This document shows, one piece after another, positions 9,075 to 64,000 of a DNA stretch of 64,000 nt. The notes below the pieces were generated by a model. That model was not told the origin of the DNA and did not search any database. It worked only from the letters and a program-made list of their open reading frames with translations. The stretch's first letter is position 1, and every line of letters starts with the position of its first letter. The DNA is from Closterium sp. NIES-65 (Eukaryota; Streptophyta; Zygnematophyceae; Desmidiales; Closteriaceae): assembly GCA_948144175.1 (NCBI GenBank), contig CANXME010002101.1, forward strand, positions 208,501 to 272,500. The letters run 5' to 3'. The translations under genes and the position numbers were made by a program.

Positions 9075-12000
9075 ATGGCTTCTCAGTTTGACAGCCGTAC
9101 GAAGCATGGACCAGCCCTGGCCGTCGATCTCTCTTCTCTCGTCTCAACACTGCACACCTCTCTAGCTGATCACAAGCAGCGCTTTGAAACTTTCTGCGAG
9201 ACGCACCGGCAAAGGTTTCAGGGCATTCAGGCCACCTTGTCCTCGTTTCCATCCGCATCATTGCCATCCGGAGCAGCGGACTGCCGTGCTTCTTCCAGCA
9301 GGTCGCACGTTCAATCAGTAGGGCATCGCTCGGGTAAGGCACGACGAGCGGCGAAAGGATCGCAAGGAGCAGAAGCTCGCGCAGCCCTTCCTTTAGCCGC
9401 CATTTCGAGCGCTGCATTTGTCAAATCGCCGGCGTCCGTAGCGCGGGTGAACAGCGAGAAGGCCGATGGTGCACCCGCCGTCACCAGCGCCAACTTCGGA
9501 AAAGCCCCCACGTCGATGCCACTCTCCGTCGCATCCCTAAAAACCGTAAGCTCGGAGGCATCAGCCATCGAGGAGCGCAAGCTGACGTCAGATGCGCCGC
9601 TCGCCGAGGCTGCTGCGCAGGATCGGGGTGGGTGTGTGGACGAGGTGGTGACACGACCGTCGCTGGTGCAGCTGCTGACGCACCCCTTGGCGCTCCTCCG
9701 TGGCATTCCCAAGGACGCCGCGTTTTTCATCTCCGGTGCCGTCGCCGGCGCTGCCGCTAAAACCGCGACCGCGCCGCTAGACCGTTGGAAGCTGATGATC
9801 CAGGTGGGTGACGTGACGAGAGTGTGGTGGGAAAGCCAGAAACGACTGGGAGTGGGGTGCAAGAGGGGAAAACGGTCGGATCGGTTTGCATTTCTCCTGT
9901 TTGTCAACAATGTCTTTTTTTCGCTCTCTCTTTCCGCAACCCGCTATCACCCCTCGTTAACCCCAGGTCAAGAGCGTTCTACCGGGGAAGGTCATCCCGC
10001 CGAGGGAGATCAACCTCGTTAAGGTGATTTCCCGTCAGCATCTTCCGCCGCTGCTCCTGGCCCTGTGTTGTGCATTCGGTGGCTCTCCACATTGTGTCAT
10101 CACCTCCTGTGCATTTCATCCCATGTTGCCGCATTGACATCAAATCAGGTCACGTTGCCATGCGGCTTCCGTTGCCGGTCAGACCCATGCTTAATGTGGT
10201 ATTTCTATCATCTGCCTGTCGCCGATTTTTGCTGGCAGTCGTTTCTGGACATTGGGAAGGAAGGCGGCGTGACTGCTTACTGGAAAGGAAACCTGCCCCA
10301 GGTAACCTTTCCCTCACACTGATCATTCTCTCCTTGACTTGCGTCGGGCAGAGTCGTATTTTTAAAACCCTGTCCCCTCCACTGTGTCACTCTATCCCGC
10401 TATTCTTCCCCCCGTTCATGTTCCCATCAATCTCCTCTTCGCCTCGTCTTTATTCGCCTGTCAACCACACTCCCCCACCTTCCCCCCTCCCCTCCTCCTC
10501 CCCCCTAACACACACACTCTCTCTCTCCCCTCCCTCAGGTCATGCGCATTGTGCCGTATAGTGCAGTGCAGCTCTTCGCCTACGAGCTCTACAAGGTGCG
10601 TCGTCGCCTCACCGTTTCTCGCCTTACCGCTCGTAGTCTTTCCGCTCGTGCAAGCTGAAAATCTTTCACCCGGTTTTAAGTCGACTAGTTGACTCAAAAC
10701 TCAAATTCCCACACCCGCGTCTACTGTTCTCAGAAGCAATTCCAAGGCAGCAGCAAGGAGCTGTCGGTGCCGGCGCGGCTGGCGGCGGGGGCGTGCGCGG
10801 GGATGACGTCGACGCTGGTGACGTACCCGCTGGACGTGCTGCGACTGCGCATGGCGCTAGACGCCACCAACGGGAGCATCGCGCAGGTGGGCATCGGGGA
10901 TTGGGTTAGACTCGCTGCGAGGTGCTGCGTTATAGTGATAGTGGTGGCTGGAGCCGTAGCGTATGCAGCCGGAGCACTGCCGAGGTATGGGAGCAGGGAT
11001 AGAGGAGCACGTGGGCACGAGAAGCGATCATCGAGCGTCAGGGGAAGCGGCGGCCACGTAGGTGATCAGCGGCTGGGGCTTACAGCGTTGTTCGGAAAGC
11101 AGGGCGGACGAGCATGTTCCGTTGAAAGAGTTGCCTTTGGTTCCTCTACAGAGAGTAGCGCAGGGAAGGATGCGTCAGCGAGACGACGGGAGGGATTGAA
11201 GCAGAGAGGAGGTTGCGCCACAAGCCGCTGTAGGACTGATAGTTCTGGGAGTGGCAGTGTCGGCCATTGGAGATTGTTGGGAGGGTACAACAGACGATAT
11301 TTAAACTATCGGGCTGTAGCGGAGTCACCAGTGTGAGGGAAAATCACATCGGTGCATGATTATTGTGTAACTTCCAAGCGCTGGGATGGCTGTAGCGGAG
11401 GCAAGAGAGAGGCGGAAAGGGGGGTGGTTGGCGCGGCTAAGTGGTCAAGGCTCGGGGCTGTGGTGATTACCATTGCCACATCACACATGCATACTAGTGC
11501 TGCACTTCTCTAGCTTGCGCACTACCATCCTCCCTCGTTGCTTTGCTGGACTCTTGTGGCGTCTTACCCTCGCTAGCATTACCTATACCAGCACCGCACC
11601 ACGTGTGTAGCCATGCTCACTCTGTTTCGCTATGCCCGTGCGGCACTCTCTCCGTGTGTGGCTCTGCGTGGGTGGCAGGTGGCGATGGCGATGGTGAGGG
11701 AGGAGGGCGCGAGGTCGCTGTACAAGGGGCTGGGGCCGGCGCTGGTGTCCATTGCGCCCTACATCGCGCTCAACTTCTGCGCTTATGACATGTGCGTCAT
11801 GAGGGGATGGGGCATGTGCGTCATGAGGGGATGGGCATGTGCGTGCTGGGATAGGGTGTGTGTGCGTGCTACGATTGGGCATGTGTATGCTTGGATCGGC
11901 CGTGTGCATGCTGGGCTGGGGCCGGCGCTGGTGTCCATTGCGCCCTACATCGCGCTCAACTTCTGCGCTTATGACATGTGCGCGCGGGGGGATGGGTTTT

Positions 12001-13904
12001 CGCGTGCCTAGGAAGGGCGTGCGCTTGGGGGGATTGGCCATATGCATGTTGGGATGGGGAAGCCTGGGCCCGGCGCTTGTGTCCATTGCGCCTGACATCG
12101 CCCTCAACTTCAACGCCCCTTCCTGCTTCCCCCCCCGTTTTCCACCCATCCTCGCGTCTCACCCCGCTTCCCCCCCCGTTTTCCACCCATCCTCGCGTCT
12201 CACCCCGCTTCCCCCCCCGTTTTCCACCCATCCTCGCGTCTCACCCCGCCTCCCCACCCGTTTTCCACCCATCCTCGCGTCTCACCCCGCTTCCCCTCCC
12301 GTTTTCCACCCATCCTCACGTCTCACCCCGCTTACCACCCTTTTTCCACCCATCCTCGCGTCTCACCCCGCTTCTCCACCCGTTTTCCACCCATCCTTGC
12401 GTCTCGCCCCGCTTCCCCACCCGTTTTCCACCCATCCTCGCGTCTCACCCCGCTTCCCACCCGTTTTCCACCCATCCTCGCGTCTCACCCCGCTTCCCAC
12501 CCGTTTTCCACCCATCCTCGCGTCTCACCCCGCTTCCCCACCCGTTTTCCACCCATCCTCACGTCTCACCTCACCCCTCTTCCCCGCCCTTTTCCCTCCC
12601 CCCCTCCTCGCCCACCTCTCCCCTACCTCAGGATCAAGCGGAGGGTGCCAGAGCAGTACCAGGGCACGCCCCAGGCGAACCTGGTGACGGCGCTGGCAGC
12701 CACAACACTGGCGACGGTGTCATGCTACCCCATTGACACTGTGCGGCGCCAGATGCAGATGAAGGGGTCGCCCTTCAACTCCATGCTTGAGGCCTTCCCA
12801 GGTGCGTACGGTACGGGGGTGACTTGTGAATGCACTCACAAGGTGCCAGAGTGGAGGACTGGCGACGGTGTCGTGCTACCCCATCGACACTGTGCGGCGC
12901 CAGATGCAGATGAAGGGGTCGCCCTTCAACTCCATGCTTGATGCTGTGTGTATGTATGGAGCGACGAATATCCGAGCCATGAGTCAAGTCACGAGGCGCC
13001 AGAGAGGCTGGCCCTGGTCTCATGCTACCCCACCCATTGACACCGTGCGGTGCCAGATGCAGTGCAGATGAAGGGCTTGCCTTTCAACTCCATGCTCGAG
13101 GCCTTCCCAGGTGAAAGGCTGCGTCCTTGTGGACGACTCGTGAGCCAGACTCACACAGCATTAGAGTGAAAGGCTGGTTCTTTGAACTCCTTTCTTGTGG
13201 TCCTACCATGTTCGGGGTGGGTCATGACTGATGAGTCGACCCACAAGGCGTCAGATGCACAAGAGATGGGGTCCCCCCCTTCAAATCCTTGCTCCAGGCC
13301 TTTCCAGGTAGAAAGTTACTTCTGAGTCGACCATTACAGATGAAGGATTCATGCGCCAGGTTTGTGTGTGCGAGGGAGGGACTAAATAATCTGAGTGACA
13401 GGTGAGTCTCATGAATGCTGTGCTCTAAAGCTATGTGCTTAAATGCTGGAGTGCGCGGGTGTGTGTGTGTTGGCAGGCATCGTGAAGCGAGATGGATGGC
13501 TGGGGCTGTACCGAGGCTTTATCGCCAACACGGTGAAGAACCTCCCTAACAGCAGGTAAGCGTTGTGGCCTGCCCCTAGTGATATACCACTTTCTGGCTC
13601 TACTTACTCGCACCCATTGTCTCTTTCACTGTTTCTGAAGATGCTTGGCTTGGCTCTTTTTCACTTTCCTTTCTCCTCGTTTTTCCTTGCCTCTTGCAGT
13701 GTGCGCCTGACGACATATGACGCCGTGAAGAACACCATTCTCTCCGGCCACTCACAGTGGGACCGCCTAATCGTAGAGCGCAAGCGTCTCAGCAAGGCCA
13801 GGTTGCCAACAAGGCAGAATGGTGGAGGGGGAGCAAGCAGCAGCACCAGTAGCAGCGTATTGGCCACTGTTGCAAGTGCATCTGCGCAAACAGTCGTTTG
13901 TTGA
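9075..13904 (+). CDS. TAAC: thylakoid/plastid-type ADP,ATP carrier (mitochondrial carrier family)
   Basis: Nine exons give an in-frame protein of about 541 residues: 9075-9803, 9967-10023, 10239-10301, 10539-10595, 10734-10886, 11679-11791, 12632-12801, 13477-13555 and 13700-13904. All junctions are GT-AG and phases are consistent. After a ~200-residue N-terminal extension (probably a plastid transit region) come three mitochondrial-carrier repeats with signatures TAPLDRWK, TYPLDVLRLR and CYPIDTVRRQMQMKG. WKGNLPQVMRIVPYSAVQLFAYE and GLGPALVSIAPYIALNFCAYD blocks are as in the plant thylakoid ADP,ATP carrier. It would exchange stromal ATP for lumenal ADP or move adenine nucleotides across a plastid membrane. 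The Ser-rich C-terminal tail is poorly conserved. Introns 6 and 7 carry decayed copies of exons 6 and 7. Confidence 0.88.
11913..12114 (+). pseudogene. two decayed copies of carrier exon 6
   Basis: 11913-11979 is an almost exact copy of the 3' half of exon 6 (LGPALVSIAPYIALNF) including the end of the exon and its GTG donor. 12065-12114 is a second, more diverged copy that trails off into the minisatellite. Confidence 0.85.
12118..12580. repeat. ~40-bp minisatellite in carrier intron 6
   Basis: About eleven tandem units containing GTTTTCCACCCATCCTCGCG, C/T-rich on the plus strand. The array ends shortly before the exon 7 acceptor and may supply its pyrimidine tract. Confidence 0.9.
12858..13308 (+). 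pseudogene. three decayed copies of carrier exon 7 in intron 7
   Basis: Copies at 12858-12945, 13016-13111 and 13247-13308 repeat the exon 7 segment encoding CYPIDTVRRQMQMKGSPFNSML, with rising divergence. The second and third keep CCCAG|GTGAA and TCCAG|GTAGA donors. The second contains small insertions and the third lacks most of the segment. Confidence 0.88.
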
Positions 13905-18300: not shown

Positions 18301-21300
18301 GCGTGGGAGGGGCGCCGTTAGCTTCCCCCAGGAGTATGGGGCCTCCGCAGATCCCCCCTGTTTCTCCCCGCGGGGAATTCGCAGGGGCGCAGGCTGGCGG
18401 AAGCAGCAGCAAGCAGCGGGGGATTGGGGGAGCATCTCCGGAGGAGTCAGGGGGGGCGGGGATGGGCGCTCGACCCGGTGCAATGGGCGGAAGCAGGGGG
18501 GGGCAGGCGGGGGGAGCTGTTACGATGGGGCAAATGCGCGGAGGTGGGGGCGCGGGAGCAGATTCGCGGGGGATGATGGGGATGGAGGGGGGCGGAGGGA
18601 TGAGCGCAATGGCGGGATTGACACCCCCGCGGCTTCCATCGCTGGCCGGAATGCGGAGAGTGCAGAGCACAGGCGATATCCAGGTGTGATTGGGGCTCGG
18701 ATGAATACAGGCACGTACACCAATACATGATTTAGAATCAGAGCTGACTTTTGAGTCGACTCAAAAGTCAGCACGTACACCAATACATGATTTAGAATCA
18801 GAGCTGACTTTTGAGTCGACTCAAAAGTCAGCACGTACACCAATACATGATTTAGAATCAGAGCTGACTTTTGAGTCGACTCAAAAGTCAGCACGTACAC
18901 CAATACATGATTTAGAATCAGAGCTGACTTTTGAGTCGACTCAAAAGTCAGCACGTACACCAATACATGATTTAGAATCAGAGCTGACTTTTGAGTCGAC
19001 TCAAAAGTCAGCACGTACACCAATACATGATTTAGAATCAGAGCTGACTTTTGAGTCGACTCAAAAGTCAGCACGTACACCAATACATGATTTAGAATCA
19101 GAGCTGACTTTTGAGTCGACTCAAAAGTCAGCACGTACACCAATACATGATTTAGAATCAGAGCTGACTTTTGAGTCGACTCAAAAGTCAGCACGTACAC
19201 CAATACATGATTTAGAATCAGAGCTGACTTTTGAGTCGACTCAAAAGTCAGCACGTACACCAATACATGATTTAGAATCAGAGCTGACTTTTGAGTCGAC
19301 TCAAAAGTCAGCACGTACACCAATACATGATTTAGAATCAGAGCTGACTTTTGAGTCGACTCAAAAGTCAGCACGTACACCAATACATGATTTAGAATCA
19401 GAGCTGACTTTTGAGTCGACTCAAAAGTCAGCACGTACACCAATACATGATTTAGAATCAGAGCTGACTTTTGAGTCGACTCAAAAGTCAGCACGTACAC
19501 CAATACATGATTTAGAGTCATGTAAACGCAGAAGGGTGCAATGCAAAAAGCAAGATGGGTATGGTGCTGATTACTTGAGAGATACTCATTCACAAGCCGC
19601 AGAACATATTGGTTTCTTATAAAGATGCTTGAGTGACAATGACATCTGGCAGGAAACAAGCGCAGCAGTAAGTCAATGTAGCATTTACATCCCCACTCTT
19701 CTCCCACCCTTCTCCACCCGTGAGATGCCGTTTCTCTCTCCCTCACTTCCCTCACTTCCCTCTCCATAACTTCACCAACTTCCCTTCCCTACCTTTCACC
19801 TCACTTCATCTTCCTCTCGGGCTGCACCACCTGAGCGCCATGCTCGGGCTGCACCACCTGAGCGCCATGCTCGGGCTGCACCACCTGAGCGCCATGCTCG
19901 GGCTGCACCACCTGAGCGCCATGCTCGGGCTGCACCACCTGAGCGCCATGCTCGTGCTGCGCATCCCATCGAGTTCTTGCCTCTCACTTCAATCTTCTTT
20001 GTGACCCCCTCCCCTTCCTTCCCCTTCTCCTTCCCCTTCCCGACTCTTACCCCTCTCCATCCCATCCCGCCCCTCCCTTTTCCCTTCATCCCACGGACCC
20101 TGAGCGCCATGTCAGGGCTGCCCTTCCCATCAGAAGTACTGCTCATCTAGGTTCTTCCCCCTACCCTTGATGGACTCTTCTCCCGTCCCTCCCTCCCTCC
20201 CTCCCTCCCTCCCTCCCTCCCTCCCTCCCTCCCTCCCTCCCTCCCTCCCTCCCTCCCTCCCTCCCTCCCTCCCTCCCTCCCTCCCTCCCTCCCTCCCTCC
20301 CTCCCTCCCTCCCTCCCTCCCTCCCTCCCTCCCTCCCTCCCTCCCTCCCTCCCTCCCTCCCTCCCTCGCTCGCTCCCACAGTCACAGAGTGCCATATATT
20401 TCTGCCCTTCCCATCAAGAGTACTGCTCAATTAGGTTCTTTCTTCCTCCTACCCTTGATGGGCTCTCTTCCCGTCTCTCTCTTCCCGTCTCTCTCTCCCT
20501 CCCTCCCTCCCTCCCTCCCTCCCTCCCTCCCTCGCTCCCACAGTCACAGAGTGCCATGTCAGGGCTGCCCTTCCCCATGGGGGGTGGCTTGGGGGATGAT
20601 GGCGGTGCTGTGTTCCGTGTGGGGCGCTACACTGTGGAGGATCGCCAGCAGCGCATCTCTTTGCTCCAGCAAAAACCCCTTTGCGTTGACTCAGCAGTCA
20701 TTTGAATCCCTTCCCGCCCCCTCCCATCCCTTCTCCTCGGATGCTGCAGTCCCTGAGCGCCATGGCTGGGCTGCCCTTCCCCGTGGGGGATGACGGCTCT
20801 GGTGTGTTCCGCGTGGGGCGCTACACCCTGGAGGAGCGCCAGCAGCGGACATTCCATTCTCATTCTCCTTCTCTCTCCTTCTTGTCCCGTCTCTCACCCT
20901 TCTACCCATGCTGCAGTCTCTGAGCGCCATGGCTGGGCTGCCCTTCCCCATGGAGAACGAGGGAGGGGGAGTGTTTCGCGTGGGGCGATACACCTTGGAC
21001 GAGCGCCAGCCAGCAGCGCATCTCTTTGTACTCGCAAAACTCTTTGGAGTTGAATCAGAATATATTTGAATCCCATCCCTTCCCGTCCCACCACCTTCTC
21101 CTCGGATGCTGCAGTCCCTGAGCGCCATGGCTGGGCTGCCCTTCCCCGTGGGGGATGACGGCTCTGGTGTGTTCCGCGTGGGGCGCTACACCCTGGAGGA
21201 GCGCCAGCAGCGCATCTCCCGCTACCGGCAGAAGCGGCACGAACGCAACTACACCAAGAAGATCAAGGTGGGTGCATGCATGTGAGTCAGTGCATGCATG

Positions 21301-23828
21301 TGAGTCAGTGCATGCATGTGAGTCAGTGCATGCATGTGAGTCAGTGCATGCATGTGAGTCAGTGCATGCATGTGTGTCAGTGCATGCATGTGAGTCAGTG
21401 CATGCATGTGTGTCAGTGCATGCATGTGTGTCAGTGCATGCATGTGTGTCAGTGCATGCATGTGTGTCAGTGCATGCTGGTGTGTGGGAGCATGCGGGTG
21501 TGTGGGGCCATTTGTATGCGTGGGGATGAAAGCATGAGCTGTGGTGGGGGAAATGCCAGCAGCGCATCTCACGCTACTGGCAGGAGCGGCACGAGCGCAA
21601 CTACACCAAAAAGATCAAGGTGGGTTCAGGCATGTGTGTGTGCGTTCAGGCATCAAGGTGGGTTCAGGCATCAAGGTGGGTTCAGGCATCAAGGTGGGTT
21701 CAGGCATCAAGGTGGGTTCAGGCATCAAGGTGGGTTCAGGCATCAAGGTGGGTTCAGGCATCAAGGTGGGTTCAGGCATCAAGGTGGGTTCAGGCATCAA
21801 GGTGGGTTCAGGCATCAAGGTGGGTTCAGGCATCAAGGTGGGTTCAGGCATCAAGGTGGGTTCAGGCATCAAGGTGGGTTCAGGCATCAAGGTGCGTTCA
21901 GGCATCAAGGTGGGTTCAGGCATCAAGGTGGGTTCAGGCATGTGTGTGTGCGGATGTGCTTCTGTGTGGGGGTGCTCGTGTATGTGTGTGGGGGGGGTGC
22001 TCGTGTATGTGTGTGGGGGGGGTGCTCATGTATGTGTGTGTGCTCATGTATGTGTGGGTGCTCATGTATGTGTGGGTGCTCATGTATGTGTGGGTGCTAA
22101 TCCCTCACCCTTTTTTTAGTAAGTGTGTTTATAGACTTTGTTCGCCCTGTCCCCTTCCATGTCCACCATACCCCTCACCCCTCCCCCCTCACCCATCTCC
22201 ACCTCACCCCACCTCACTCCTCTCCCCTTTCCCTTCTCTCAACTCCATTCCCCCCTTTCCCCTGTCGCTCGTCTCTTCCCCCTTCGCCCCTCTCCCGAGC
22301 TCTCCCCATCCCTTCTCACACACCTTCCGCACCCCTCCCCCTCACCCTTCCTCCTCATCCCTAACCCCTCCCCCGCAAAACCCCCCCTCACCCCTCAACC
22401 CTCCCCCCCCCCCCCCACCTCCCCTGCACCTCCCCCTCACTATGCACCCATCCCCACTCACCCCTTCACTTTTCCCCTTCAAACTCCCCCCATCATTCTC
22501 CCCTTCCAGTATCTGTGCCGCAAGACTTTAGTGACCAATAGCCTTTGAGTCAGTTCAAAAGTCACCTCTGTTTCCCCCCTCTCCCCTCTTCTCCCCCTCT
22601 CCCCTTCATTTCTCCCCCCTCCAGTACGTGTGCCGCAAGACTCTCACAAACTGCCCCTCCCACCTCCCCCTCATCCCCTCCCCCCACCTCCCCCAGTATG
22701 TGTGCTGCAAGACTCTGGCAGACAGCTGCCTTTGAGTCGTCTCACAAGGCACCCTGTGTGTCTTTCCCCTCCGCCCCTCATATCCCCCCACCGTCCCCCC
22801 ATCTTCCCCCCACCGTTCCCCCACCGTCCCCCCACCGTCCCCCCACCGTCCCCCCACCGTCCCCCCACCTTCCCCCCACCCTTCCCCCACCTCCCCCAGT
22901 ATGTGTGCCGCAAGACTCTGGCAGACAGCCGCCCGCGCGTGCGGGGAAGATTCGCGCGCAATGATGACATGGTGAGACTGGCAGGCAGGCAGGCAGGCAG
23001 GCAGGGGCGGGAGAGGAGGGGTTATGCTGGGTGGGGAGGTTTTTGACCGGTTCCAAAACATCGCTTGCGGTGATGGCATGGTGAACGGGCAGAGAGAGGG
23101 GGACTGGGGAGGAGGAGATATGTTGAGTGGGGCTGGGGATGGGGGTGGTTATGCAGAGGCAGAGGGCTGTGGCCTGGATTGATAGGCGAGAGACGATTGG
23201 ATGGAGAGAGAGGGGGGTGGCATGGTGAGGGAAGGGGGGTGGCATGGCTGGTGGGGGAGAAAGCGTGTGTCGAAGAAGACCTAGCGTGAGAGTGTGGGAA
23301 GGTCGAGCGAGGTTGGTAAGGCCGAGCGAAGTTGGTAACGGGTGGAAAGGAGGGCTGGAGGCTGAAGAGAGGGGAAGGATGGGGTAAAGTGATTAGAGGG
23401 GGGAATGGTGACAGGATTGAGAAGGGTGAGGAGAGGGGAAGTTGTAAGGGGATGAGGAAGGGACTTTTGAGAATTCTCAAAAGTCACATCAAGTTGTAAG
23501 GGTGAGAGTCGCCCATGGCTCTCTCGAGCTCCTTAGGTTTGAGATGTCCTCTCCTACTGCAATCGTGTGTTCCCCTCCGCTGTGTGCGCTCCTTTGGCAT
23601 GCTGTGTGCTCTCCTCGCCTCAATGTCGTCTGCTCTCTTCTCCTCTTTTGTGACCCCGCCGGTGCCTACCCTCAGGAGCAAGGGGACGGCAGCAACAGCC
23701 ACGGGGATGAGGGGGAGGGGGAGGGGGAACTGCTACCAGACGATCTCCCATTGGCCGACGATTTCTCCCCGGAAGAGTTTTCCGAGTTGCTGTTTGACGG
23801 GCCCTTGGGTGCTGATGTGGCGTGCTGA
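15350..23828 (+). CDS. CCT-motif family transcription regulator (CMF/ASML2-like)
   Basis: Six exons give about 1138 residues: 15350-15502, 15649-15826, 15976-18683, 21115-21267, 22900-22971 and 23676-23828, phases consistent. The long third exon encodes a disordered region rich in Met/Pro/Gly, His-Met runs, poly-Gln and poly-Gly, ending in MRRVQSTGDIQ, a short motif found before the CCT domain in plant CMF proteins. Exons 4 and 5 together encode the CCT domain: RVGRYTLEERQQRISRYRQ... followed by YVCRKTLADSRPRVRGRF. The last exon is acidic and could activate transcription. CCT proteins of this family act in the nucleus, typically in DNA binding or protein contacts with NF-Y subunits. An apparent stop just after 18683 is intronic. 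Introns 3 and 4 are swollen with repeats and exon copies. Confidence 0.85.
18711..19518. repeat. 60-bp perfect satellite with palindromic core in CCT gene intron 3
   Basis: Thirteen full 60-bp units plus a partial one, with no visible differences between the full units. Each unit contains ACTTTTGAG-TCGA-CTCAAAAGT (first at 18747-18768). The array starts 27 bp after the exon 3 donor. The perfect identity points to very recent amplification or to homogenisation. Confidence 0.97.
19818..19955. repeat. 27-bp minisatellite derived from CCT exon 4 start
   Basis: Five units around CTGAGCGCCATGCTCGGGCT. The unit closely resembles the first bases of exon 4 (CTGAGCGCCATGGCTGGGCT), so it probably arose from an exon copy. 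Confidence 0.85.
20187..20368. repeat. (CCCT)n microsatellite
   Basis: About 45 uninterrupted tetranucleotides. A second short (CCCT)n tract lies at 20499-20533. Both directly precede exon 4-like copies. Confidence 0.97.
20541..21036 (+). pseudogene. array of CCT exon 4 copies upstream of the used exon
   Basis: Three long copies (about 20541-20660, 20746-20850 and 20912-21036) repeat acceptor, exon start (SLSAMAGLPFP) and the RVGRYTLEERQQR segment, then lose similarity before the RYRQKR block. A short remnant of only the first ~30 bases is at 20099-20135, and a diverged one is near 20385. The intact copy is at 21115. They could be mutually exclusive exons, but each lacks the conserved KKIK end. 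Confidence 0.85.
21270..21480. repeat. 18-bp minisatellite after CCT exon 4
   Basis: About eleven copies of an 18-bp unit around GTGCATGCATGTGAGTCA, beginning within a few bases of the exon 4 donor at 21268. Confidence 0.95.
21551..21627 (+). pseudogene. copy of the 3' half of CCT exon 4 with donor
   Basis: This encodes QQRISRYWQERHERNYTKKIK followed by AAG|GTGGGT. It differs from the used exon at a Trp and a Glu. If used instead of the main exon it would lack the upstream part of the domain. Confidence 0.8.
21636..21945. repeat. 18-bp array of a splice-donor sequence
   Basis: About sixteen tandem units of GCATCAAGGTGGGTTCAG. The unit duplicates the exon/intron junction ATCAAG|GTGGGTTCAGG immediately upstream, so every unit contains a donor-like AAG|GTGGGT. 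Confidence 0.95.
22510..22740 (+). pseudogene. three truncated copies of CCT exon 5
   Basis: Copies start at 22510, 22625 and 22697, each after its own pyrimidine tract and CAG acceptor. Each encodes (Y)V/L-C-R/C-KTL and then breaks off. The first and third end at degenerate palindromes of the TTTGAG-N4-CTCA type. The intact exon 5 is at 22900. Confidence 0.88.
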
Positions 23829-24922: not shown

Positions 24923-25019
<97 letters not shown>

Positions 25020-29385: not shown

Positions 29386-29543
29386 ACCAATCGTAGCGTC
29401 ACGACGATTGCGTTTCCCACCAAACGACGACTTTTCGCGGTTGCACTGCTCCTCGCCCCGCCTCCTTCGTTACTTCCCCTTCTCGCTGTCGAACGAGCAG
29501 TACAAAAGAAGCACTCAGCAGCAATCCAGGACAAGCTTCAGCA
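29386..29543 (+). promoter_or_regulatory. LHCII copy 2 promoter and leader elements
   Basis: A CCAAT box (about 29387) and ACGACGACTTTTCGC (29425-29438) match the spacing and core of the elements at copies 1 and 3, though less closely than those match each other. The leader motif CAAGCTTCAGCA is at 29532-29543, 45 nt before the ATG. Confidence 0.5.
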
Positions 29544-29587
29544 ACTCAACGACCATCTAGTTCTCTTACATTTACAAGCAGACAGAA

Positions 29588-36652: not shown

Positions 36653-36700
36653 GTACTTCCGTATTCACTTATTTTTTATCATCCCATCAAGCAGACAGAA

Positions 36701-43600: not shown

Positions 43601-46600
43601 AGCCTGGCGCGGTGTGCCACCCGAAGCTACCATCCTCGTTCCCAACCGAGTGGGCGGAACGGGTGGAAGACACAGGAAGGTCGGACGATCCAGGGGGGGA
43701 GGGGGGTTCTATGTACATCTCGTTGTCACCCGTGTTACCAGTGTCTCCTGTGTTACCAGTGTTACCACTCTTAACAGTGTTATCAGTGTTTCTATTGTTG
43801 GCAGCATGGGAGACAGGCAGGGGGCGTGGTTGAGAAGGGAAGGGCTGCCGTGTTGGGGTGTTGAGAGGGCTACGAGAAGGGGAGCGGGGAGGAACGTTCG
43901 GGACAGGGACGTTTGGAGGAGAGAGGTTCGGAGGAAGGTTCGTAGGTGATAGGTTGGGGGGACGGAGGTTGGGAGAAGCACGCCTGGTGGGAGGTGGCGA
44001 AGGGCGGGGGGCAGAAGAGGCGAGGGGGGAAGGGGGAGTGGATAGAGCATTGGGGATGCCAGGAGCAGGAGGGGTGGGTGGGCGTGAAACTGGGGGTGTT
44101 TTTTGAGACGTCTCAAATGCGGTGGGGATGGAAGGAGCAGCAGGAGGGGTGAGAGGGCGTGAGAGTGGGGGAGTGCGGGAACGGTTGTGGGGGGGGCGGG
44201 GGAGACATGTCAAAACGAGACTGTGTGTGGGGACGAGGAGGAGTGGGAAGGGGAGAGGGGGGACGAGGGATTTGCTGAGTCGACTTGAACTGAGGAAGGG
44301 GAGAGGGGTGAGGCGAGGGAAAGGGCGAGCGGTGAGGGGAGGGAAGGGGAGAGCGGTGAGGGGAGGGAAGGGGAGAGCGGTGAGGGGAGGGAAGGGGAGA
44401 GCGGTGAGGGGAGGGAAGGGGAGAGCGGTGAGGGGAGGGAAGGGGAGAGCGGTGAGGGGAGGGAATGGGAGAATTTGGAGTGGGAGATGGGGAGGAGAGG
44501 GGCGGGCATGTGGGCGAAGGAGCTTTTTGCTGCAGGTGGGATGGAAGGGAAGGACGCTGCTGCTGCTGCTGCTGCTGTTGCTGCTGCTGCCGCCCACTTA
44601 AGTAATCCCTTGGGCTTCGCATGCTGTATTGCCCTGTCTCCACCCCATCACCCCTTCCCTCATCACCCCCGCCCTCATCACCCCTTCCCTCATCATCCCC
44701 TCCCCCGTCATCCCCTCCCCCGTCACCCTCTCCCCCATTGCCAGAGTAGACCCGCCCCACTCCTCTAGAACCTAAAGGCATGCTCCCAGAATGCACGACC
44801 AGCTGCATCCCCTGCCAACCCTCTGCCCCCTCACCTTCCTCTCCCTGCCAACCTGCTGCCTCCTCACACTCTCCTCCCTGCCCCCCTTCCTGCCTCCCTC
44901 CCTGCACCCCTCTCCTCCTCTCTCCCTCTCCCTCCTCTCCCTCTCTCTCCTCCTCTTCCTCCTCCTCTTCCTCCTCCTTTCCCCCCTCCCTCTCCCCTCC
45001 AGCACCAGCACCTACCGCACCACCCCGTTCCCCACCCATCCTCACCCCTCTCAGCCCCTCGCCCAAAGCAGCTGCAGCGGCAGGAGGGGCAACACTCCCC
45101 GCATTCCCCTCTAAACCTTTCCCTTGCGCCGACTGGAATCCCTGAGACGCCTGGAAAGCTTGAAAAGCTTGGAAGGACTTGAAAGCATCGGCGCCACTCC
45201 CTGTATTGCCGTCAGAAGCATTGTTTTGGGATGACTGACACGCCTGCATAGACTGAAAACCATTCGGGCCCTGAACGCCACTGCCCGTATTGCCGCCGTC
45301 TGAAGCATTTCTTTGAGACTGAAAAGACTGAAACGCCAGGAAAGCCTGGGGAGAGTGGAGAGGCGGAAAAGGTTCCGGCCCGCTGCCCGCATTCTTCTGA
45401 GATGCCTCAAAAGCTGCCCGAAAAGCATCAAAATCACTGCCCGCGTTTCCCCCGTGAGAGGCACTGAAATGCTGAGAGCTGGTGGGAGGGTTACCGTTAA
45501 TAGAGCTGGTGGGGGGGTTACCGAGCATAGAACTAGTAGGAGGATTGCCGTTGAGGGAACTACTAGGGGGATTGCCAAGCAGGGAGCTCCCAGGGGGGTT
45601 AAATGGGGAGGACGGGTGGAAGGGGGAGGATGGATGGAAAGGGGAGGAGGGGCGCAGAGGCGAACCGGAAAAGGAATAGTTGTTGAAGGAAGAGGCATTG
45701 AAGGAAGAAGCATTGAAGGACGAAGCGTTCAATGAAGAGGCGTTGAATCCCGAGAGGGCCAGGGCAGCTGGGTTGGTGGCAGATAATGCGTGCAGTGCAG
45801 AGGGGTTCAGAGCAGCGAGGTTCAGTGCAGAGGGGTTGAGAGCGGTGGAGTTGAGAGGATTGGCCTGGCTAAGCAACGAGCCTAAGGAGCCCTGGAAGCT
45901 CATGGGAGGAGGACTCATCCCGCCTCGCAGACCGTTCAGTTGCCCGTTCATCTGCCCGTTCAACTGCCCGTTCAGCTGCCCCAACCCCATCAAATTACAC
46001 ATGGGCGCACCCATTCCCCGAGCCTGAGCCAGCAGGGAGGCTTGGGAAGCTGCGAGCATCTGTGCCTGTGCTGCCGCCTGCACCCGAGCCTGCACCACCC
46101 GAGCCTGCTGCATCTGAGCCTGAGCCATAGCCTGGGCCCGAACCTGCACCTCAGTTTGTACCCGAACCTGCGCCTGTGCCATCTGCTGCAAAACGCTCGT
46201 CTCTTGTATAAGCCTCCGAACCTCAGCCTCCTTTTTCCTTAGTCTCTCCTCCTCCCTCTCCGAAACCTCCCTGCTATCCCCCTCGTTTTCATCATCCTCA
46301 TCCTCCTCGTCCTCTTCCTCCTCCTCCCTTCTCCTTCTCCTCCTTTTCTTCCTCCTCCCTTCTAGCCTACTTGATAACCTATTTACTGAGCTCCCTCCCT
46401 CACTCTCGCTCTCACTCTCACTCTCCCAACTCCTGCCTCTGCTCCGGGATAAGTCCCTAGTCCATCCATCCTCCTCGTCCTCCTCCCTTTCCTCCTCTCC
46501 ATTCTCCTCGCTACCCCCATCATCATTATCACCACCACCACCCACATCATCCCCTCTTCTCCTCTCACCCTCACTCACACCCCTCGCCTCCTCCCTTCCT

Positions 46601-53379: not shown

Positions 53380-56300
53380 TCAATGAGCTGGGACGACTAT
53401 CATGATGGTCACGTCCCCAGCATCCCAGTGGTGTGCCTGCACCCAGAAAGACACAGGAGAAACAAATAGTCGGACAAGCAGACAGATAAAATCCATGACT
53501 AGGCGGATGGGGCTGACTAAGAAGAAGAAGCCATAAATCCATCAAAGCACACAACGGATGAAGTGAACCCACGCCATCAATGCTTTGAATCATGAAGGGC
53601 ACCGATACGGTAGGTGAGCCTTGCAGGGCACTAGGCACAGGCAACGTAGGGGGGATCCCTTCGACGACGTTATACCGGCTAAAATATCCATTGTCACGTG
53701 TGAAATCGGAAGTGCATCACATCTCATATTTCAAAAGAATGTCAATACTCCCACAAACGGAGAATGTTGATCGCAGAATGTCAAACTCACCTGGGGCTCG
53801 TGTGAGGCAACCAGCACGCGCAGGCAGGTGTGCAGGGAAAAGACGGAGCGCGGCCACCCCATGGAGTGGGCGGCACTGGCCTCGTGCGCCGTCCACATCT
53901 GCATGCTGCCGTCCGCTGCTATGGCGCCCCATGCAACTTCCTCGAGGTATGAGCGCTCCTGTAGTGGTGTGCAGAGACACGTGTGATGTGAATGGTGTTA
54001 CGCACATAAGCTTTGAAGTCTGAAACCCCATTGTGCTAGGTGCATGGTGGCTACCCCAGTGGTGTGGTAGGGAAGGTGCTTCAATGCACCAACTTTTTAT
54101 TGTGCATTTTGTGGTAAGACACATGCCACAAAGTGACTGTTGTGTCAACTCAAAAGCCATCTCGCATTGAGTCGACTCATAAGTCAAGACAAATGGTCTC
54201 TGCCTGTTGCAAAGGTACGCATATCTCATGCCACAACCTAGCAGCCTTGACCCTCAGCACCACACCAGCCAACCAGCACTTACCATGGGAGAAGACGCAA
54301 GGTGTCGTGACGACCACGTCAGCCCTAACCCCTACGTTCCCCACACTTCCCTCCTCCATTTGAGGCGCATAAAAAATTGTCTCTTACCCACCATTATTGA
54401 GGTGCCTCAAAAGCACTTACCATGGAAAAGACAAGAGGTGTAGTGATGACCACGTCAGCCTTAACCCTCATCTTCCCCACACTTCCCTCCTCCCCTTCTC
54501 TATCCCAACTCCCCTCACTACCACCGTCCACTCCCCTCACTCCTCCCCCTCCTCCTCCTCCTCCTCCTCCTCCTCCTCCTCCTCCTCCTCCTCCTCCTCC
54601 TCCTCCTCCTCCTCCTCCTCCTCCTCCTCCTCCTCCTCCTCCCCCTCCCGCTCCCCCTCCCCCCCCCTCCCCTCCCTCCCCCTCTCTCCACATCCTTTTT
54701 AAGCTCCCAACGTTTAATCACCTCTCTGGTCCCCGCACTACCCCTCAATACAGTCACACTCAGCTCAGGCGCTCTTTGCTCCAGAAGCCCCTCCCATGCC
54801 GCTACAGCCGAGCCAGGCACCACCAGCAGACTCGGTCTCATGCGCCCGGCTGTAGCGCCAGGAGCACCTGCTGCACCTGCAGCGGCTGTAGCGGCTGTAG
54901 CGGCAGCGGCAACAGCGGCTGCTGTGGCTTCACTGGTTGCAGCAGCTGTGGCATTTGCAGCTACGGGAGCAGAGGCGAGGTGTTGAGAGGTGACGGGCGG
55001 GTGGGCTGATTGCTGGGAGTGGAAGTCACGAGAGAGGCTGCACAGGAGCGCAGCCAGCACTAGCCGGTTTGCCTGGTGGGGAGAGAGAGGGAAGAAGTGA
55101 GGAGAAGGGAGCGGGGAGAAGGGCAAGAAGGTCAAGAGACGGGAGTGGAAGTCACCAGAGAGGCTGCACAGGAGCGCAGCCAGCACTAGCCGGTTTGCCT
55201 GGTGGGGAGAGAGAGGGAAGAAGGAGGTCATATGAGTAAGTGAGGAGAAGGAAGAAGCAGAGAGAGGGGAGAAGGGAGGACGGGAGAAGGAACGAGCAGA
55301 ATAGAGGGGGGTGCGTGGGCCAAAGGAGAAGGGAGACTGGTGAGAAAGGGACGGGCGGTATGCAGACTACCAATCACACCTCACCTCCTCTCACATCTGC
55401 CTGCTCATCTCACATCTGCCTGCTCATCTCACATCCGTTCGTGAGTCAACCTATTGTCACTAATTTCACCACTCATCCCCCCCCTTCTCGTCCCCTCCCT
55501 CACCCAAACTCACCTCACAACTCACTCCTTTCAGCACGGCCCACTCTCCTTGCTACCTGCTGCTCTTCCTCCTCCCTCTCGTCTCGCTTCACCCCCGCCA
55601 CTCTCCCCACCCCCAGCAGTCCACTCTCCTTGCTACCTGCTGCTCGTCCTTCACCCACCCAAACTCACCTCATAACTCACTCCTTGCAGAACGGCCCACT
55701 CTACCTTGCTACCTGCTGCTCCTCGTCCTTCCTCTAGCCCCCCCCCACCCCCCCTCCCCCCGCCACTCTCCCCACCCCCAGCAGTCTGCACTCCCTCCAC
55801 CGGCTCACGCCTTACCGCCTTCTCTCCCTCCCTCTCCCTCCCTCTCCCTCCCTCTCCCTCTCCCTCTCCCTCTTGTGAGAACAGGAGTTAGGAGTGAAGT
55901 TGATGATTTGATTGTGAATCATGGGGGTATACATAGTAATGGGGTTGGATGTTAACCTAAGGTGACATTATTGGACCCCAACCAAGAAGTTGGGTTGGGA
56001 GATTATTGGTGGGGTCCAATAATGTTGGCCAAGTTGGGGTTGGGCCAACATTATTGGACGGGGCCAATAATTCTACCCAACCCAACCTTTTGGGGTCCAA
56101 TAATTGGACCAAGGTTGGGTTCCAACCTACAAACTGGGTTACCCCTATTTGTACACCCAAACTAAGTTTGGGTGCTTAACTCTAGCCTATCCTATAGTAT
56201 ATATGCAGGTTACAAGAGGAGAGGGATTCTAACACAACCCCTTAACCTACAGAGATGCGGAAAGGCTTGAGGGAAGCAACTCCTGAATCAAAGCGCGCCT

Positions 56301-58181: not shown

Positions 58182-58262
<81 letters not shown>

Positions 58263-61200: not shown

Positions 61201-64000
61201 CTAGCCTATCCTATAGTATATATGCAGGTTACAAGAGTAGAGGGATTCTAACACCTCTCCCTCTCCCTCGCCCTCTCCCTCTCCCTCTCCCTCTCCCTCT
61301 CCCTCTCCCTCTCCCTCTCCACCACAAAACACTCACCTCATAGCTCACTCCTCGCAGCACAGCGCACTCTTTTTGCTGCACGCCCCACTCTCCCAGTTGC
61401 CTGCTGCTCTTCCTCCTCCCTCTCGCCCCTGCACCACTCTCCACCCCTCCCAAGGGACCACAATCCCTCCACCGGCTCCTGAGGGCGTTCAGGTTCTCCA
61501 GCTGCTGCTGCTTCGGAGCGTCAGACATTGCAATCCAGTGGGGTGCAGCGCGGTCCGGTATGGCGCACAGAGCATGCTGCCCTGGTAAAAACACCCCCAG
61601 ACTCTCTCCCTTCCCGTCTCTCCCCCGTTCCACCACCCCGCCTCCCTGCTCTCCCTGCTCCCTCTCCCAGAACCGAGCCAACAAACGCCGCCCGGCAGCC
61701 TCCTGCAGCACGCTCCCATTGGCCGGCTCCCACGTGCACTGTTCATAGCCCAGCCCCCGCCACAGGACAAAAAACTCCACCCCCCAGTCGGGCCTGTACC
61801 CCCTGCCTCTGCCCCGCCCCGCCCCTGGTCTTATAGGTGGCCTGGTGACCCGCTTGGCTATGAGTTTTCTTGGTTGAGCCCAGTGAGGATTCCATGTGGG
61901 GGAGAACTGTGGTAGAAGAAGGGGGGAAAGTGAGGGAAGCAGAGAAGGAGGTAATGAGAAAACCTTCACCCCCCAGTCAGGGCGATACCCCCTGCCTCTG
62001 CCCCGGCCCGCCCCTGGTCTTATAGGTGGCCTGGTGATTCGCTTTGCTTTGAGCTTTTTTGGTTGGGCCCAATGGGGGTTCCACGTGGGACAGAACTGAA
62101 CGGATGAAAGGGTGAAAAAGGGAAGGAAAGACGGCCTGTTATACCCCCTGCCCCTGCCTCTGCCCTGGTCCGCCCCCGGCCTTATAGGTGGCCGGGTGAT
62201 TCGCTTAGCTATGAGCTTCCTTGGTTGGGCCCAATGGGGGTTCCACGTGGGGCAGAACTGAACGGATGAAGGGGGGGACAGGGCGGGAAGGAGGTTCTGT
62301 TATACCAGGCTCTAACGCAGCACCTCTGGCTCTGCCCCCAACCACAGTCCGACCCCGGCCTTATAGGTGGCCTGGCTACCCGCTTTGCTATGAGATTCCA
62401 TGGTTGGGGCCAGTGGGGGCTCCACGTGGGGGAGAACTGAAGGGAGAGATGGGATGGAGGAGAAGGGAGGGAAGGAAGGAAGTGAGGAGGGGCCTGTTAT
62501 ACCCCCACCTCTACAAGCCACACTCTTTTGAGTGGACTCAAAAGGAAGTGAGGAGGGACTGTTATACCCCCACCTCTACAAGCCACACTCTTTGTTAACA
62601 AAGCCGAATCAGCGTGTAGAGAATGTAGTTTTTAGAAGGTCTCAAAACTGCACTCTCTACAAGTGCCTCCACGAGCCACACTCTGTGTTAACAAAGCCAA
62701 ATCAGCGCACGCCTGCATCGCCCCCTTCACATCATCTCACCTCCACTGTGGCCGCCCGGGCTTTAAAGATCGCGAGCTGTCTGGGAGCATTGCTTGCTAG
62801 CCATGCCTCGCCCACCCAGCTGTTGTGCGCGTGGGACAACCCCTTCCACTTAACAAAGTACTCGCACTTAGCTGCCCCATTACCAGCACCAGCAGCACCA
62901 CCACCACCACTGCCGCCACCACCCCCACCACCCCCACCACCAAGACTGGCACCATTACTCCCACCATTGCACCAAGCAATGTCAGCAGTTCCTTCTAACA
63001 AACATCTGGCTGCCCCTTCCCCTTCTACTCCTGGTAACCCTGTTCTATCTCCCAACCCTCTTCCTGGCTTCTTTACCTCTTGCCCCATCCTCTCACTCCT
63101 CCCACCATCCGCTCCTCCTGCCACGGCTCCTCTCCCCCCTCCTCTTCCTCCTCTTCCTCCACTTCTTCCTCTGCCTCCTCCTCTCCTTCTGATTGGCCCT
63201 GTACTGCCATTGTTTGTTCCGTTACAAGCCCTTACTGACTCTGCTGCCCCTGCCGCTGCACCTCTCAACCGCCCTGAACCACACTGATCGTGCGACCTGG
63301 TTGTTCGTAGTTCCATCACTCTCTTTTCTCCCCCCTCCCTCCCCACCTGACGCTGCTGCTTCTTCTTCTCCTTCTTCTCCAGCTGCTGCTGCTTCTGCTT
63401 TCCCTGCTGCTTCTCCTTCTGCTGCTGCTGCTGCTTATCCTGTTGCTGCTTCTCCCCCTGCTGCAGCTGACCTTGCACAAACTGCTGCTCATCTCGATCC
63501 TCGTTGCCCCTCCCATTCTCCTCCCTCCCCTCCACCCCCCTCTCCTCTTCATCCACCCACACAGCCATGGTCGGAATCTCATCCTCCTCCTCACTACTCT
63601 CACTCTCACTCCCCGCCCCATCAGACTCACACTCCCCTTCCAAATCCCCAAGCATAGCCCCCTCAGGCCCAGCCCCCCTGGGTGGTCCTGTCCCCCAAGG
63701 TGTTTCTGCTGTCCCGCCCTCTTTCTCACCGCTACAATCAGCACAGGGATGCTCGTGGGATGGTTTGGAGTGCTCGTGGGTGGTGGGATGGTCGCGGTTG
63801 TGGGGTTGCGGTAGTTGGCCGAGCTGGTGGTGTTGATGGTCGTGGTGGTAGTCGCTGTCATCGTGACCGTGCATCCTCATGCAGTAATCAAGGTTCTGTG
63901 TACCGGGTGCAGCACCGTCTGTAGCCCCGGCTGTAGCACCGGCTGTAGCAGCAGCAGCTGCAGCAGCACTGGCAGAAGCAGCAGCAGGGGTATCCCGGGC
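53380..64000 (-). CDS. CHD3/MOM1-like chromatin protein with degenerate SNF2 ATPase (partial, 5' end beyond right edge)
   Basis: Minus-strand exons with consistent phase are >64000-62741, 61906-61337, 55072-54421, 53958-53791 and, tentatively, 53436-53380. The first is open to the edge; it carries acidic, poly-Gln/Lys and RGG-like segments, then chromodomain 1 (EYFVKWKGLSHAHNSWVGEA). The second holds chromodomain 2 (EFFVLWRGLGYEQCTWEP) and the start of the SNF2 lobe (QLENLNALRSRW). The third continues it: ANRLVLAALLCSL, SLLVVPGSAVAAWEG, APELSVTVLRGSAGTREVIK and ADVVITTPLVF. At the Walker A position there is SYEANR instead of the usual GLGKT, and at the Walker B position ADGSM instead of DEGH. 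These losses and the S-x-A-x-x-x-WE block resemble plant MOM1, a silencing factor. The third exon changes frame across a (CCT)n tract. No helicase C-terminal lobe is seen. Confidence 0.7.
54286..54363 (-). pseudogene. copy of the end of the MOM1-like third exon with donor
   Basis: This encodes RADVVVTTPCVFSH followed by a GTAAGT donor, matching KADVVITTPLVFSM|GTAAGT at 54421. It lies just downstream in the following intron. Degenerate palindromes flank it at 54143-54189 and 54399-54415. Confidence 0.85.
54544..54642. repeat. (CCT)n microsatellite in the MOM1-like third exon
   Basis: About 33 trinucleotides. Read on the minus strand it gives poly-Arg in the frame entering from the right and poly-Gly in the frame needed on the left, so its length decides whether the exon is intact. 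Confidence 0.95.
55139..55202 (-). pseudogene. copy of the MOM1-like third exon start
   Basis: A near-perfect copy of ANRLVLAALLCSLS-DFHS with its own CCACCAG acceptor, 130 bp upstream of the used exon. It diverges after the segment. Confidence 0.88.
55500..55735 (-). pseudogene. two copies of the end of the MOM1-like second exon
   Basis: About 55500-55570 and 55660-55735 repeat the exon end (AVLRGVSYE-like) followed by GTGAGTTTGGG donors. A short match to NALRSRWRD lies near 55780-55800. They lie left of the Copia insertion while the used exon lies right of it, so they predate or are independent of the insertion. Confidence 0.75.
55874..56234 (-). repeat. Copia 3' LTR
   Basis: 361 bp with TG...CA ends. 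It differs from the other LTR at about eight positions by eye (roughly 98% identity), pointing to a fairly recent insertion. Confidence 0.93.
56288..57544 (-). CDS. Copia reverse transcriptase-RNase H fragment
   Basis: An open frame of 418 residues from an internal ATG. It starts within the reverse transcriptase palm (MEIDSMDVSNAFLQGELHE), contains YGLKQAPREWH and the YVDD catalytic box, then the connection and RNase H domains ending in DIFTKALLRPAH. The N-terminal part of the enzyme continues to the right in the same element but is cut by a TGA at about 57674. Function is that of the retrotransposon only. Confidence 0.92.
   Translation of the reverse strand: MDIGARDDMEIDSMDVSNAFLQGELHEHIFLRRPPGFHAAFPDNTVWQLRRPVYGLKQAPREWHANLSATLQSLGFSASHSDASLFIRSSPRRFFISVYVDDMILLADTKADMEQVKRSLQERLKCKDLGSLQNYLGMAITRDRSARTITLSQSHYIGQVLEKFEMAQAKPVSTPLPFGHQLAPPTSPSTSSRPYAELVGSLMYAMMCTRPDLAYPIGVLARFVGSGRHTEDHWAAAKRVLRYLRGTKDHALTLGGSSPPLLSGFSHSSWANSQPDRRSSQGYGFTLGSGLISWCSTRSSAVALSSCEAELYAGTTAAQESRRLCFLLAELGAPHRCPTLWCDNASTIHLTQDPVFHGRSKHIELRYFFIRELVQQNLIAVRKIAAEANLADIFTKALLRPAHSALLRLIGLAPPGAL
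58039..58275. repeat. (CTG)n tract inside the Copia coding region
   Basis: Imperfect CTG/CCG trinucleotides at the left become an uninterrupted (CTG)n run of about 22 units. It lies in the linker between integrase and reverse transcriptase. Confidence 0.95.
58262..60430 (-). pseudogene. Copia gag fused to integrase C-terminus
   Basis: A long open frame with a Pro/Arg-rich head, a UBN2-type gag core (FQARELRASVIWAELHAMFE, DYVGRMREVADRLEARQAGL) and a Gly/Ser linker. It then joins abruptly the last part of an integrase, with the third catalytic residue (Glu in QQNGVAE), GYALLHAALLLN and VWGCKAYV. The catalytic Asp residues, the HHCC domain and the protease are deleted. It ends at a TAG after the (CTG)n tract. 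Confidence 0.88.
60165..60770. repeat. GC-rich ~70-bp tandem repeat in the Copia leader
   Basis: About eight imperfect units containing GGCTGGCGAGGCCGCGGCTG and GCGGAGGCGGCGTCGAGGCC, between the 5' LTR and gag. They give a Pro/Arg-rich frame and make the leader extremely GC-rich. Confidence 0.9.
60893..61253 (-). repeat. Copia 5' LTR
   Basis: 361 bp, TG...CA ends, same length as the partner LTR. The primer-binding site lies directly inside. Confidence 0.93.
61254..61319. repeat. (CTCTCC)n tract at the Copia insertion site
   Basis: The host sequence on both sides of the element is (CTCTCC)n (55825-55873 and 61254-61319), so the element entered a hexanucleotide repeat in the intron. Confidence 0.9.
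61970..62450 (-). pseudogene. three copies of the start of the MOM1-like second exon
   Basis: 61970-62094, 62135-62255 and 62312-62442 (approximate) each repeat the exon start: AG acceptor, F-C/S-PTW-x-PHW, then RPPIRPG and, in the nearest copies, a GRGRGRGY run. All remain open over the shared stretch but stop before the chromodomain 2 core (FFVLWRGL). They could be decayed copies or alternative exons. Confidence 0.85.

What the first reader, a model, noticed from the sequence alone, without database searches (positions are those of the whole stretch)
10683..62543. A short palindrome, ACTTTTGAG-N4-CTCAAAAGT, recurs at the junctions of duplicated segments
A 22-bp inverted repeat with a variable 4-base centre recurs across the window, perfect or degenerate. 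Centres seen: TCGA in every satellite unit (18747 onward), AATT at 23463, AATT at 42082, ACGT at 44098, ATGC at 45388, GTGC at 54399, TGGA at 62524. Degenerate forms are at 10683, 12820, 13222, 13320, 22543, 22729, 41446, 44271 and 54143. Many sit exactly where a decayed exon copy begins or ends: 12820 before carrier exon 7 copy 1, 22543 and 22729 at the truncation points of CCT exon 5 copies, 41446 at the end of the fused kinase copy, 42082 between two copies, 54399 next to a donor. Inside the giant coding region (44098, 45388) they separate tandemly repeated protein segments and encode FE(T/A)SQK. I infer a link between this element and local segment duplication, for example hairpin-driven template switching or the footprint of a mobile element.
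Basis: partly seen in the sequence, partly recalled or inferred. Interest (0 to 1): 0.9.

Follow-up and report, generated by a model that had tools for sequence, protein, structure and literature searches.

The report
Palindrome wedged between duplicated DNA segments
In the nuclear DNA of a one-celled green alga (Closterium), a roughly 20-26-letter palindrome turns up repeatedly between two copies of the same stretch of host DNA, which looks like the footprint of a recurring insertion-with-duplication event that may break up, restore and possibly create introns.

Summary
The palindrome family is real. Outside the 13-unit, 60-bp satellite, 10 sites have at most 4 of 18 arm mismatches, against 0.185 per shuffle.

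The main observation holds at most loci: the palindrome lies between two direct copies (T) of host DNA. With motif-only sites, 6 of 9 loci have flanking direct repeats above the 90th percentile of 3000 random positions (binomial 6e-5; one only just). Scrambled palindromes give 2 of 37. Unrelated hairpins give 2 of 35 by local score, but 5 of 35 by the stricter abutting score, against 7 of 11 family loci at either threshold.

The source is a Closterium. Best reading: a short palindromic patch inserted at staggered breaks with duplication of the overhang; array growth gives T-(pal-T)n, including the satellite. Exon copies survive where an intact exon remains. In a kinase gene, a fused exon copy lacking the intron (41465-41617), between two duplications carrying AG|GT, suggests intron gain. 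Genome-wide and strain comparisons could not be run; the mechanism is inferred.

The parts
18711..19520 (.). 60-bp satellite with 13 perfect palindromes; begins with T and ends with a partial T (GCACGTACACCAATACATGATTTAGA), i.e. T-(palindrome-T)n
12822..12843 (.). palindrome copy (4 mismatches) after carrier exon, between T copies 12707-12793 and 12858-12944
12973..12998 (.). decayed palindrome copy (model E 2.2) before the third exon copy (13008-13102)
13227..13248 (.). palindrome copy (5 mismatches) before a fourth, decayed exon copy
22541..22562 (.). palindrome copy (3 mismatches) at the truncation point of the first copy of exon YVCRKTLADSRP
22728..22749 (.). palindrome copy (4 mismatches) at the end of T 22656-22730; the other copy (22861-22933, in the intact exon) starts 111 bases after the palindrome, with simple sequence between
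23463..23484 (.). perfect palindrome, AATT centre; short flanking repeats 23439-23456 and 23491-23506
41445..41466 (.). degenerate palindrome (5 mismatches; model E 0.016) between kinase exon B copies 41316-41405 and 41465-41554
41465..41617 (-). fused A'B' kinase exon copy without intron at GCCAG|GTGGTGG; the A' part has a 19-nt deletion and a stop further upstream
41618..41673 (.). insert between A copies; holds a different, weak inverted repeat GCACTTAACACGTGCTTAGTGC (not counted as a family member)
42081..42102 (.). palindrome copy (4 mismatches) between two identical 18-bp copies CACGATGTTCTCATGCCT (42066-42083, 42103-42120)
41886..41983 (.). paralogue of the 42081 locus lacking the palindrome (empty-site-like; its right part is G-rich and matches with gaps)
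44099..44120 (.). palindrome copy (4 mismatches) in an ORF (FETSQK), T 44051-44099 and 44123-44174, period 72 = 24 codons
45393..45414 (.). palindrome copy (3 mismatches) in an ORF (FEASQK) between NAGS segments 18 codons apart; DNA repeat weak (8 bp abutting)
54136..54184 (.). two palindrome copies 27 bp apart (54136, 3 mismatches; 54163, 5); no clear flanking T
54393..54414 (.). palindrome copy (3 mismatches) at the start of T copy 54412-54493; other copy 54275-54357, 35 bases before the palindrome
62524..62545 (.). palindrome copy (2 mismatches) exactly between T copies 62476-62528 and 62542-62593 (96% identical)
62615..62661 (.). longer palindrome with the same core (22-nt arms) between T copies 62573-62614 and 62666-62707
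20677..20698 (.). possible decayed copy (5 mismatches) in the insert between exon copies 20504-20653 and 20707-20847

Best explanation
Each dispersed copy marks an event in which 'T-rest' became 'T-palindrome-T-rest': a palindromic patch of about 20-26 bp was put into a break and the host DNA beside it (T, 18 to about 130 bp in aligned length at the clear loci) was doubled. Inferred mechanism: nicks on opposite strands some tens of bases apart give a staggered break; both overhangs are filled in, which doubles T; the ends are joined through a copy of the palindrome, taken from an abundant source such as the satellite or delivered as a small mobile element. Later unequal exchange multiplies the palindrome-T unit into arrays. 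In exons such events survive when T reaches over the exon edge, because one whole exon with its splice site remains and the broken copy becomes intron; in the kinase gene two such events at an AG|GT probably made an intron. Shown here: the motif family and its statistical association with flanking duplications. Inferred: one-step insertion, staggered break, source of the palindrome, survivorship, intron gain.
For: Motif excess. Flanking direct repeats at 11 of 14 sites (8 of 11 clusters) versus 11.2% of 3000 random positions; two of the 14 (12975, 62629) were noticed while looking at junctions, and 10683, 13320, 20677, 44271 and 54163 were not put in. Simple repeats masked, first site of each of 11 clusters: Fisher 4e-6. 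Motif-only, 6 of 9 clusters versus 10%: binomial 6e-5, Fisher 1.4e-4. Scrambled palindromes 2 of 37; unrelated hairpins 2 of 35 by local score. Tight T-pal-T at 42081 (18 of 18 identical), 62524 and 44099. Empty-site-like paralogue 41886-41983. Both ORF copies keep the frame (periods 72 and 54 nt). Satellite begins with T and ends with a partial T. Intact exon beside the truncated copies.
Against: 54136/54163 have no clear T; 45393 and 23463 have weak repeats; 10683 and 13320 have none. By the abutting score 5 of 35 unrelated hairpins also pass the 95% control level. Several inserts carry 17-40 extra bases beside the palindrome (54393, 41445, 12822). Of 28 hand-listed, partly overlapping duplicated pairs, 17 have no family palindrome in the junction and 11 do, two of those weakly (12973, 20677). 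41445 is a poor palindrome although its T copies are 97% identical, so patches differ at insertion or the match is partly chance. Single-locus P values are modest (0.01-0.4). One window only.
Confidence: 0.55

Rival explanations
1. The palindrome comes first: an existing palindrome forms a hairpin or cruciform, stalls or breaks replication, and template switching doubles the neighbouring segment.
For: Same end product T-pal-T. Palindromes are break-prone (general knowledge, no call). Repeated events at one place (carrier exon, satellite) fit a hotspot. By the abutting score 5 of 35 unrelated hairpins pass the 95% control level.
Against: By local score unrelated hairpins show the association in 2 of 35 cases, both hairpins inside carrier exon copies rather than at a junction. 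One sequence recurring at unrelated sites still needs a dispersal step. The paralogue of 42081 has T without palindrome.
Confidence: 0.2
2. A dedicated mobile mini-element (a palindrome moved in trans by an unknown enzyme) inserts with long, variable target-site duplications, as in target-primed insertion.
For: Sequence-specific family whose conservation fades outside about 20-26 bp; variable T; copies in exons, introns and other DNA.
Against: No partner enzyme is known; I did not search for one beyond Pfam on 8 ORFs. Patches vary in sequence and some have extra filler. To my recollection no known DNA transposase gives duplications that vary so widely.
Confidence: 0.2
3. The palindrome is an unrelated short motif that recurs, and its place in duplicated DNA only reflects the high repeat content of the region.
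For: The window is full of tandem repeats (131 rows); flank scores have a heavy tail in controls.
Against: Controls include that background and still give an excess.
Confidence: 0.05

Closest known systems
[quoted passage not shown] PMC4974935 and PMC3443670, passages seen)
   Same: Tandem duplication of exonic or exon-boundary segments; new intron between copies; coding sequence unchanged; the potato case also crosses an intron-exon boundary.
   Different: Here a recurrent palindrome sits in the junction, and similar events recur in several genes of one window. Splicing is not shown here.
Small tandem duplications at staggered breaks by fill-in and end joining (PMC8355091, passages seen)
   Same: Duplications of tens of bases attributed to filled-in overhangs.
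   Different: The passages seen mention no shared palindromic patch in the junction.
Short palindromic repeats of Volvox carteri organelle and nuclear DNA (PMC2670323, passages seen)
   Same: Short, often degenerate palindromes dispersed in a green alga.
   Different: Other sequence (TCCCCTTTAGGGA motif in plastid DNA, TAAA/TTTA loops); the word duplication does not occur in the main text; the authors regard the nuclear copies as inert and organelle-derived.
Internally symmetrical stwintrons and introner-like elements in fungi (PMC8469720, passages seen)
   Same: Inverted-repeat units proposed to enter at double-strand breaks and to make introns.
   Different: Those units are themselves introns with 45-55-nt terminal inverted repeats and no flanking tandem duplications; here the unit is about 22 bp and carries no splice sites of its own.

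Membership tests
Intron gain by AGGT tandem duplication (kinase A/B) | duplicated segment carries AG|GT at the new splice junction | tested here: met
   both the A and the B duplication carry CAGGTG at the A/B joint
Intron gain by AGGT tandem duplication (kinase A/B) | uninterrupted ancestral exon known | tested here: inconclusive
   the A'B' copy is uninterrupted at the joint but could be a processed copy; no outgroup gene was available
Intron gain by AGGT tandem duplication (kinase A/B) | intron is spliced in mRNA | not testable with these tools
   no RNA data
Short palindromic repeats as in Volvox | dispersed short palindromes of one family | tested here: met
Short palindromic repeats as in Volvox | Volvox sequence (TCCCCTTTAGGGA; TAAA/TTTA loop) | tested here: not met
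   sequence here is TTTTGAG-N4-CTCAAAA with other centres (Volvox motif)
Short palindromic repeats as in Volvox | organelle origin | not tested
   no Closterium organelle genome was searched
DNA transposon / MITE | fixed-length target-site duplication | tested here: not met
   aligned T varies from 18 to about 130 bp at the clear loci
DNA transposon / MITE | internal sequence between terminal inverted repeats | tested here: not met
   4-base centre in the motif, 3-5 bases at 62615; 8 bases by eye at the doubtful 10683
Introner element | unit carries splice site(s) and becomes a whole intron in many genes | tested here: not met
   the palindrome has no GT...AG layout; the candidate splice sites lie in T (by eye)
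SINE/LINE-type insertion | tail or constant 3' end with variable 5' truncation | tested here: inconclusive
   no tail seen and conservation fades on both sides, but 62615 has a longer palindrome and some inserts carry extra filler

The most novel reading that the evidence does not exclude
A mobile palindrome of about 22-26 bp, possibly the smallest nuclear element of its kind, inserts throughout the Closterium genome with long, variable target duplications, and by doubling splice-site-bearing segments it drives exon decay into introns, intron growth, new introns, in-frame protein repeats and satellite birth.
Probability: 0.25. Interest if true: 0.88.

Novelty: new variant of a known kind. Interest (0 to 1): 0.66.

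Why it matters
Tandem duplication and break repair are accepted but rarely traceable sources of new introns. A sequence tag left in the junction would make such events countable across a genome and between mating strains, and would let one test whether introns, in-frame protein repeats and satellites in Closterium, an alga of the class closest to land plants, share one mutational origin.

Tried and rejected
Hairpin constraint after insertion: arm covariation was tested and not seen. General hairpin effect: disfavoured, not excluded; unrelated hairpins pass in 2 of 35 by local score and 5 of 35 by abutting score (that set of 35 includes the doubtful 10673-10700). Copies elsewhere: one exact palindrome in IMG/VR (L001), chance-level by my own rough estimate of collection size; no match of the 24-mer in the GTDB genome collection; both answers say that records near the window may be left out. 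Orthologues of the two ORF copies: no protein with E <= 0.001 among about 8000 scored candidates each, so coding status rests on open frames alone. RNA families and tRNAs: none above threshold. The different inverted repeat in the kinase insert 41618-41673 is weak by my own estimate and not counted. Retrocopy origin of A'B': A/A' 62 of 69 and B/B' 87 of 90 identical, Fisher 0.10; leans to two ages, does not decide. Literature: searches. Closterium together with palindrom* occurs in 13 papers, 10 listed, none opened; no listed title or abstract start describes this palindrome. Passages of six papers were seen, none read in full.

Full report
What was checked. The window is 64 kb of eukaryotic DNA at about 58% G+C. 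The membrane-bound O-acyltransferase ORF at 5154-6755 is 93% identical to a Closterium sp. NIES-53 protein (98% of its length) and 96% to NIES-65 and NIES-64 proteins (90% of its length), so the source is a Closterium of that group.

The motif. Scanning ACTTTTGAG-N4-CTCAAAAGT finds 13 perfect copies in the satellite, one perfect dispersed copy at 23463 and further copies with 2-5 mismatches. With the satellite removed there are 1, 1, 2, 6, 10 and 15 sites at <=0 to <=5 mismatches; 200 dinucleotide-preserving shuffles in 1-kb blocks average 0, 0, 0.005, 0.025, 0.185 and 1.6. The five-mismatch class is therefore partly chance. As a second control, all 3779 other orderings of the same nine arm letters were counted on the same sequence: means 0.0016, 0.021 and 0.149 at <=2, <=3 and <=4; none reaches 6 at <=3, three reach 11 at <=4 (arms resembling the minisatellite unit at 21272, not checked further) and one reaches 4 at <=2. 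Conservation lies in the two arms and fades outside, giving about 20-26 bp. A covariance model of 13 sites adds 41443 (E 0.016) and 12973 (E 2.2). The arms do not covary: free decay of a perfect source, or variable patches, fits better than a conserved stem.

The junctions. Self-comparison and flank alignment put the palindrome in the junction of 62476-62528 / 62542-62593, 44051-44099 / 44123-44174 (only), 54275-54357 / 54412-54493, 41316-41405 / 41465-41554, 12707-12793 / 12858-12944 and 22656-22730 / 22861-22933. At 41445, 54393 and 12822 there are also 39, 35 and 28 bases between the left copy and the palindrome, and at 22728 111 bases of mostly simple sequence before the right copy. At 42081 the two copies are 18 bp and identical. 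Two palindromes that the N4 scan misses also lie in junctions: 62615-62661, the strongest hairpin of the scan after the two in the LTRs, and 12973. Of 28 duplicated pairs that I listed by hand and the flank alignments (they overlap), 11 have a family palindrome in the junction, two of them weak (12973, 20677), and 17 have none.

Controls. Against 3000 random positions, 11 of 14 sites (8 of 11 clusters) reach a flank score that 11.2% of controls reach. Two of the 14 (12975, 62629) were noticed at junctions, and five listed or possible sites (10683, 13320, 20677, 44271, 54163) were not put in; of these, 20677 scores high and 10683, 13320 and 54163 low. After masking simple repeats, the first site of each of 11 clusters gives Fisher 4e-6. 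For sites found by the motif alone (<=4 mismatches, one per locus), 6 of 9 exceed the 90th percentile of 3000 controls (binomial 6e-5; Fisher 1.4e-4); the misses are 23463, 45393 and 54136, and 22541 passes only just (30 against 28.1). Scrambled palindromes give 2 of 37. Unrelated hairpins pass the 95% control level in 2 of 35 cases by local score, both inside carrier exon copies, but in 5 of 35 by the abutting score; family clusters pass these levels in 7 of 11 by either score (scores). With both copies required to abut the palindrome, 12822, 41445, 42081, 44099, 62524, 62629 and 23463 have P below 0.03, 45393 has 0.085, and 22541, 54136 and 54393, as well as the doubtful 20677 and 10683, are not significant.

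What the events did to genes (read by eye from the sequences). The preceding exon of that gene has a similar layout at 20504-21218, with a possible decayed palindrome at 20677. In the carrier gene (Mito_carr, E 1.4e-6) the complete exon comes first and decayed copies follow, separated by palindromes. In two open frames the palindrome reads F-E-T/A-S-Q-K, and the repeat periods of 72 and 54 nt are multiples of three; no relatives of these ORFs were found. These patterns fit selection: only events that leave a whole exon or keep the frame persist. That step is inference.

Kinase gene. On the minus strand the order is A (41742-41674), an insert, a fused copy A'B' (41617-41465), the degenerate palindrome, filler with a pyrimidine tract, and B (41405-41316). 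The fused copy reads LSHQLTECGPIPEETLAFCPCQVVEALTAFHSLGIPHG across the joint GCCAG|GTGGTGG; A' has a 19-nt deletion and a stop upstream of this stretch. A is followed by GTGAGC and B preceded by CATCAG. The simplest reading is an originally unbroken exon in which first A and then B was duplicated across the AG|GT, so that everything between became intron: the Rogers type of intron gain (PMC4974935, PMC3443670; passages). The rival is a piece copied from spliced RNA into an existing short intron. A/A' is 62 of 69 and B/B' 87 of 90 identical (Fisher 0.10), which leans to two events without deciding. Pfam finds a protein kinase domain in ORF 40626-41558, downstream of exon B; that the A-B joint is continuous in other kinases is recalled, not tested. 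The inverted repeat in the insert between A and A' is of another sequence and weak.

Mechanism. Filled-in staggered breaks are a documented source of tandem duplications of tens of bases (PMC8355091, passages), and short direct repeats flanked 43% of gained introns in Daphnia according to the review PMC3443670 (passages). What is unusual here is one recurring palindromic sequence in the junction. It could be copied from an abundant source such as the satellite, or be a tiny mobile element. The data do not separate these. That a pre-existing palindrome triggered the duplication is not excluded either, although the palindrome-free paralogue at 41886-41983 (its right part is G-rich and matches with gaps) and the weaker behaviour of other hairpins speak against it.

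Limits. One window, 12-13 independent loci, low complexity all around, no genome-wide count, no strain comparison (genome search did not complete), no RNA. The Closterium genome paper PMC10407611 gives 47-64% repeated elements, and palindrom* does not occur in its main text (passages).

Noticed in passing
55874-61254: LTR retrotransposon on the minus strand: LTRs 55874-56235 and 60893-61254 (98% identical) and a Copia-like reverse transcriptase ORF (family name recalled, no family search); each LTR holds a long hairpin (arms 18-19).
   Followed up: no
2129-3229, 29532-30385, 36414-37510: Three closely similar light-harvesting protein genes (90-99% identical over 808-1113 aligned bases), one on the opposite strand.
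   Followed up: no
61770-62439: Four tandem copies of a segment with periods of 162-189 bp and no palindrome in the junctions, directly beside two palindrome-marked duplications.
   Followed up: partly
11727-12111: Three copies of an exon piece (GGGCTGGGGCCGGCG...) separated by minisatellite-like sequence, no palindrome seen; possibly plain tandem-duplication copies in an intron.
   Followed up: no
54136-54184: Two palindrome copies 27 bp apart with no clear duplicated flank: possible tandem insertion.
   Followed up: partly
L001:12911-12932: A viral metagenome contig carries the perfect palindrome with AATT centre inside a longer inverted repeat; judged chance-level.
   Followed up: partly
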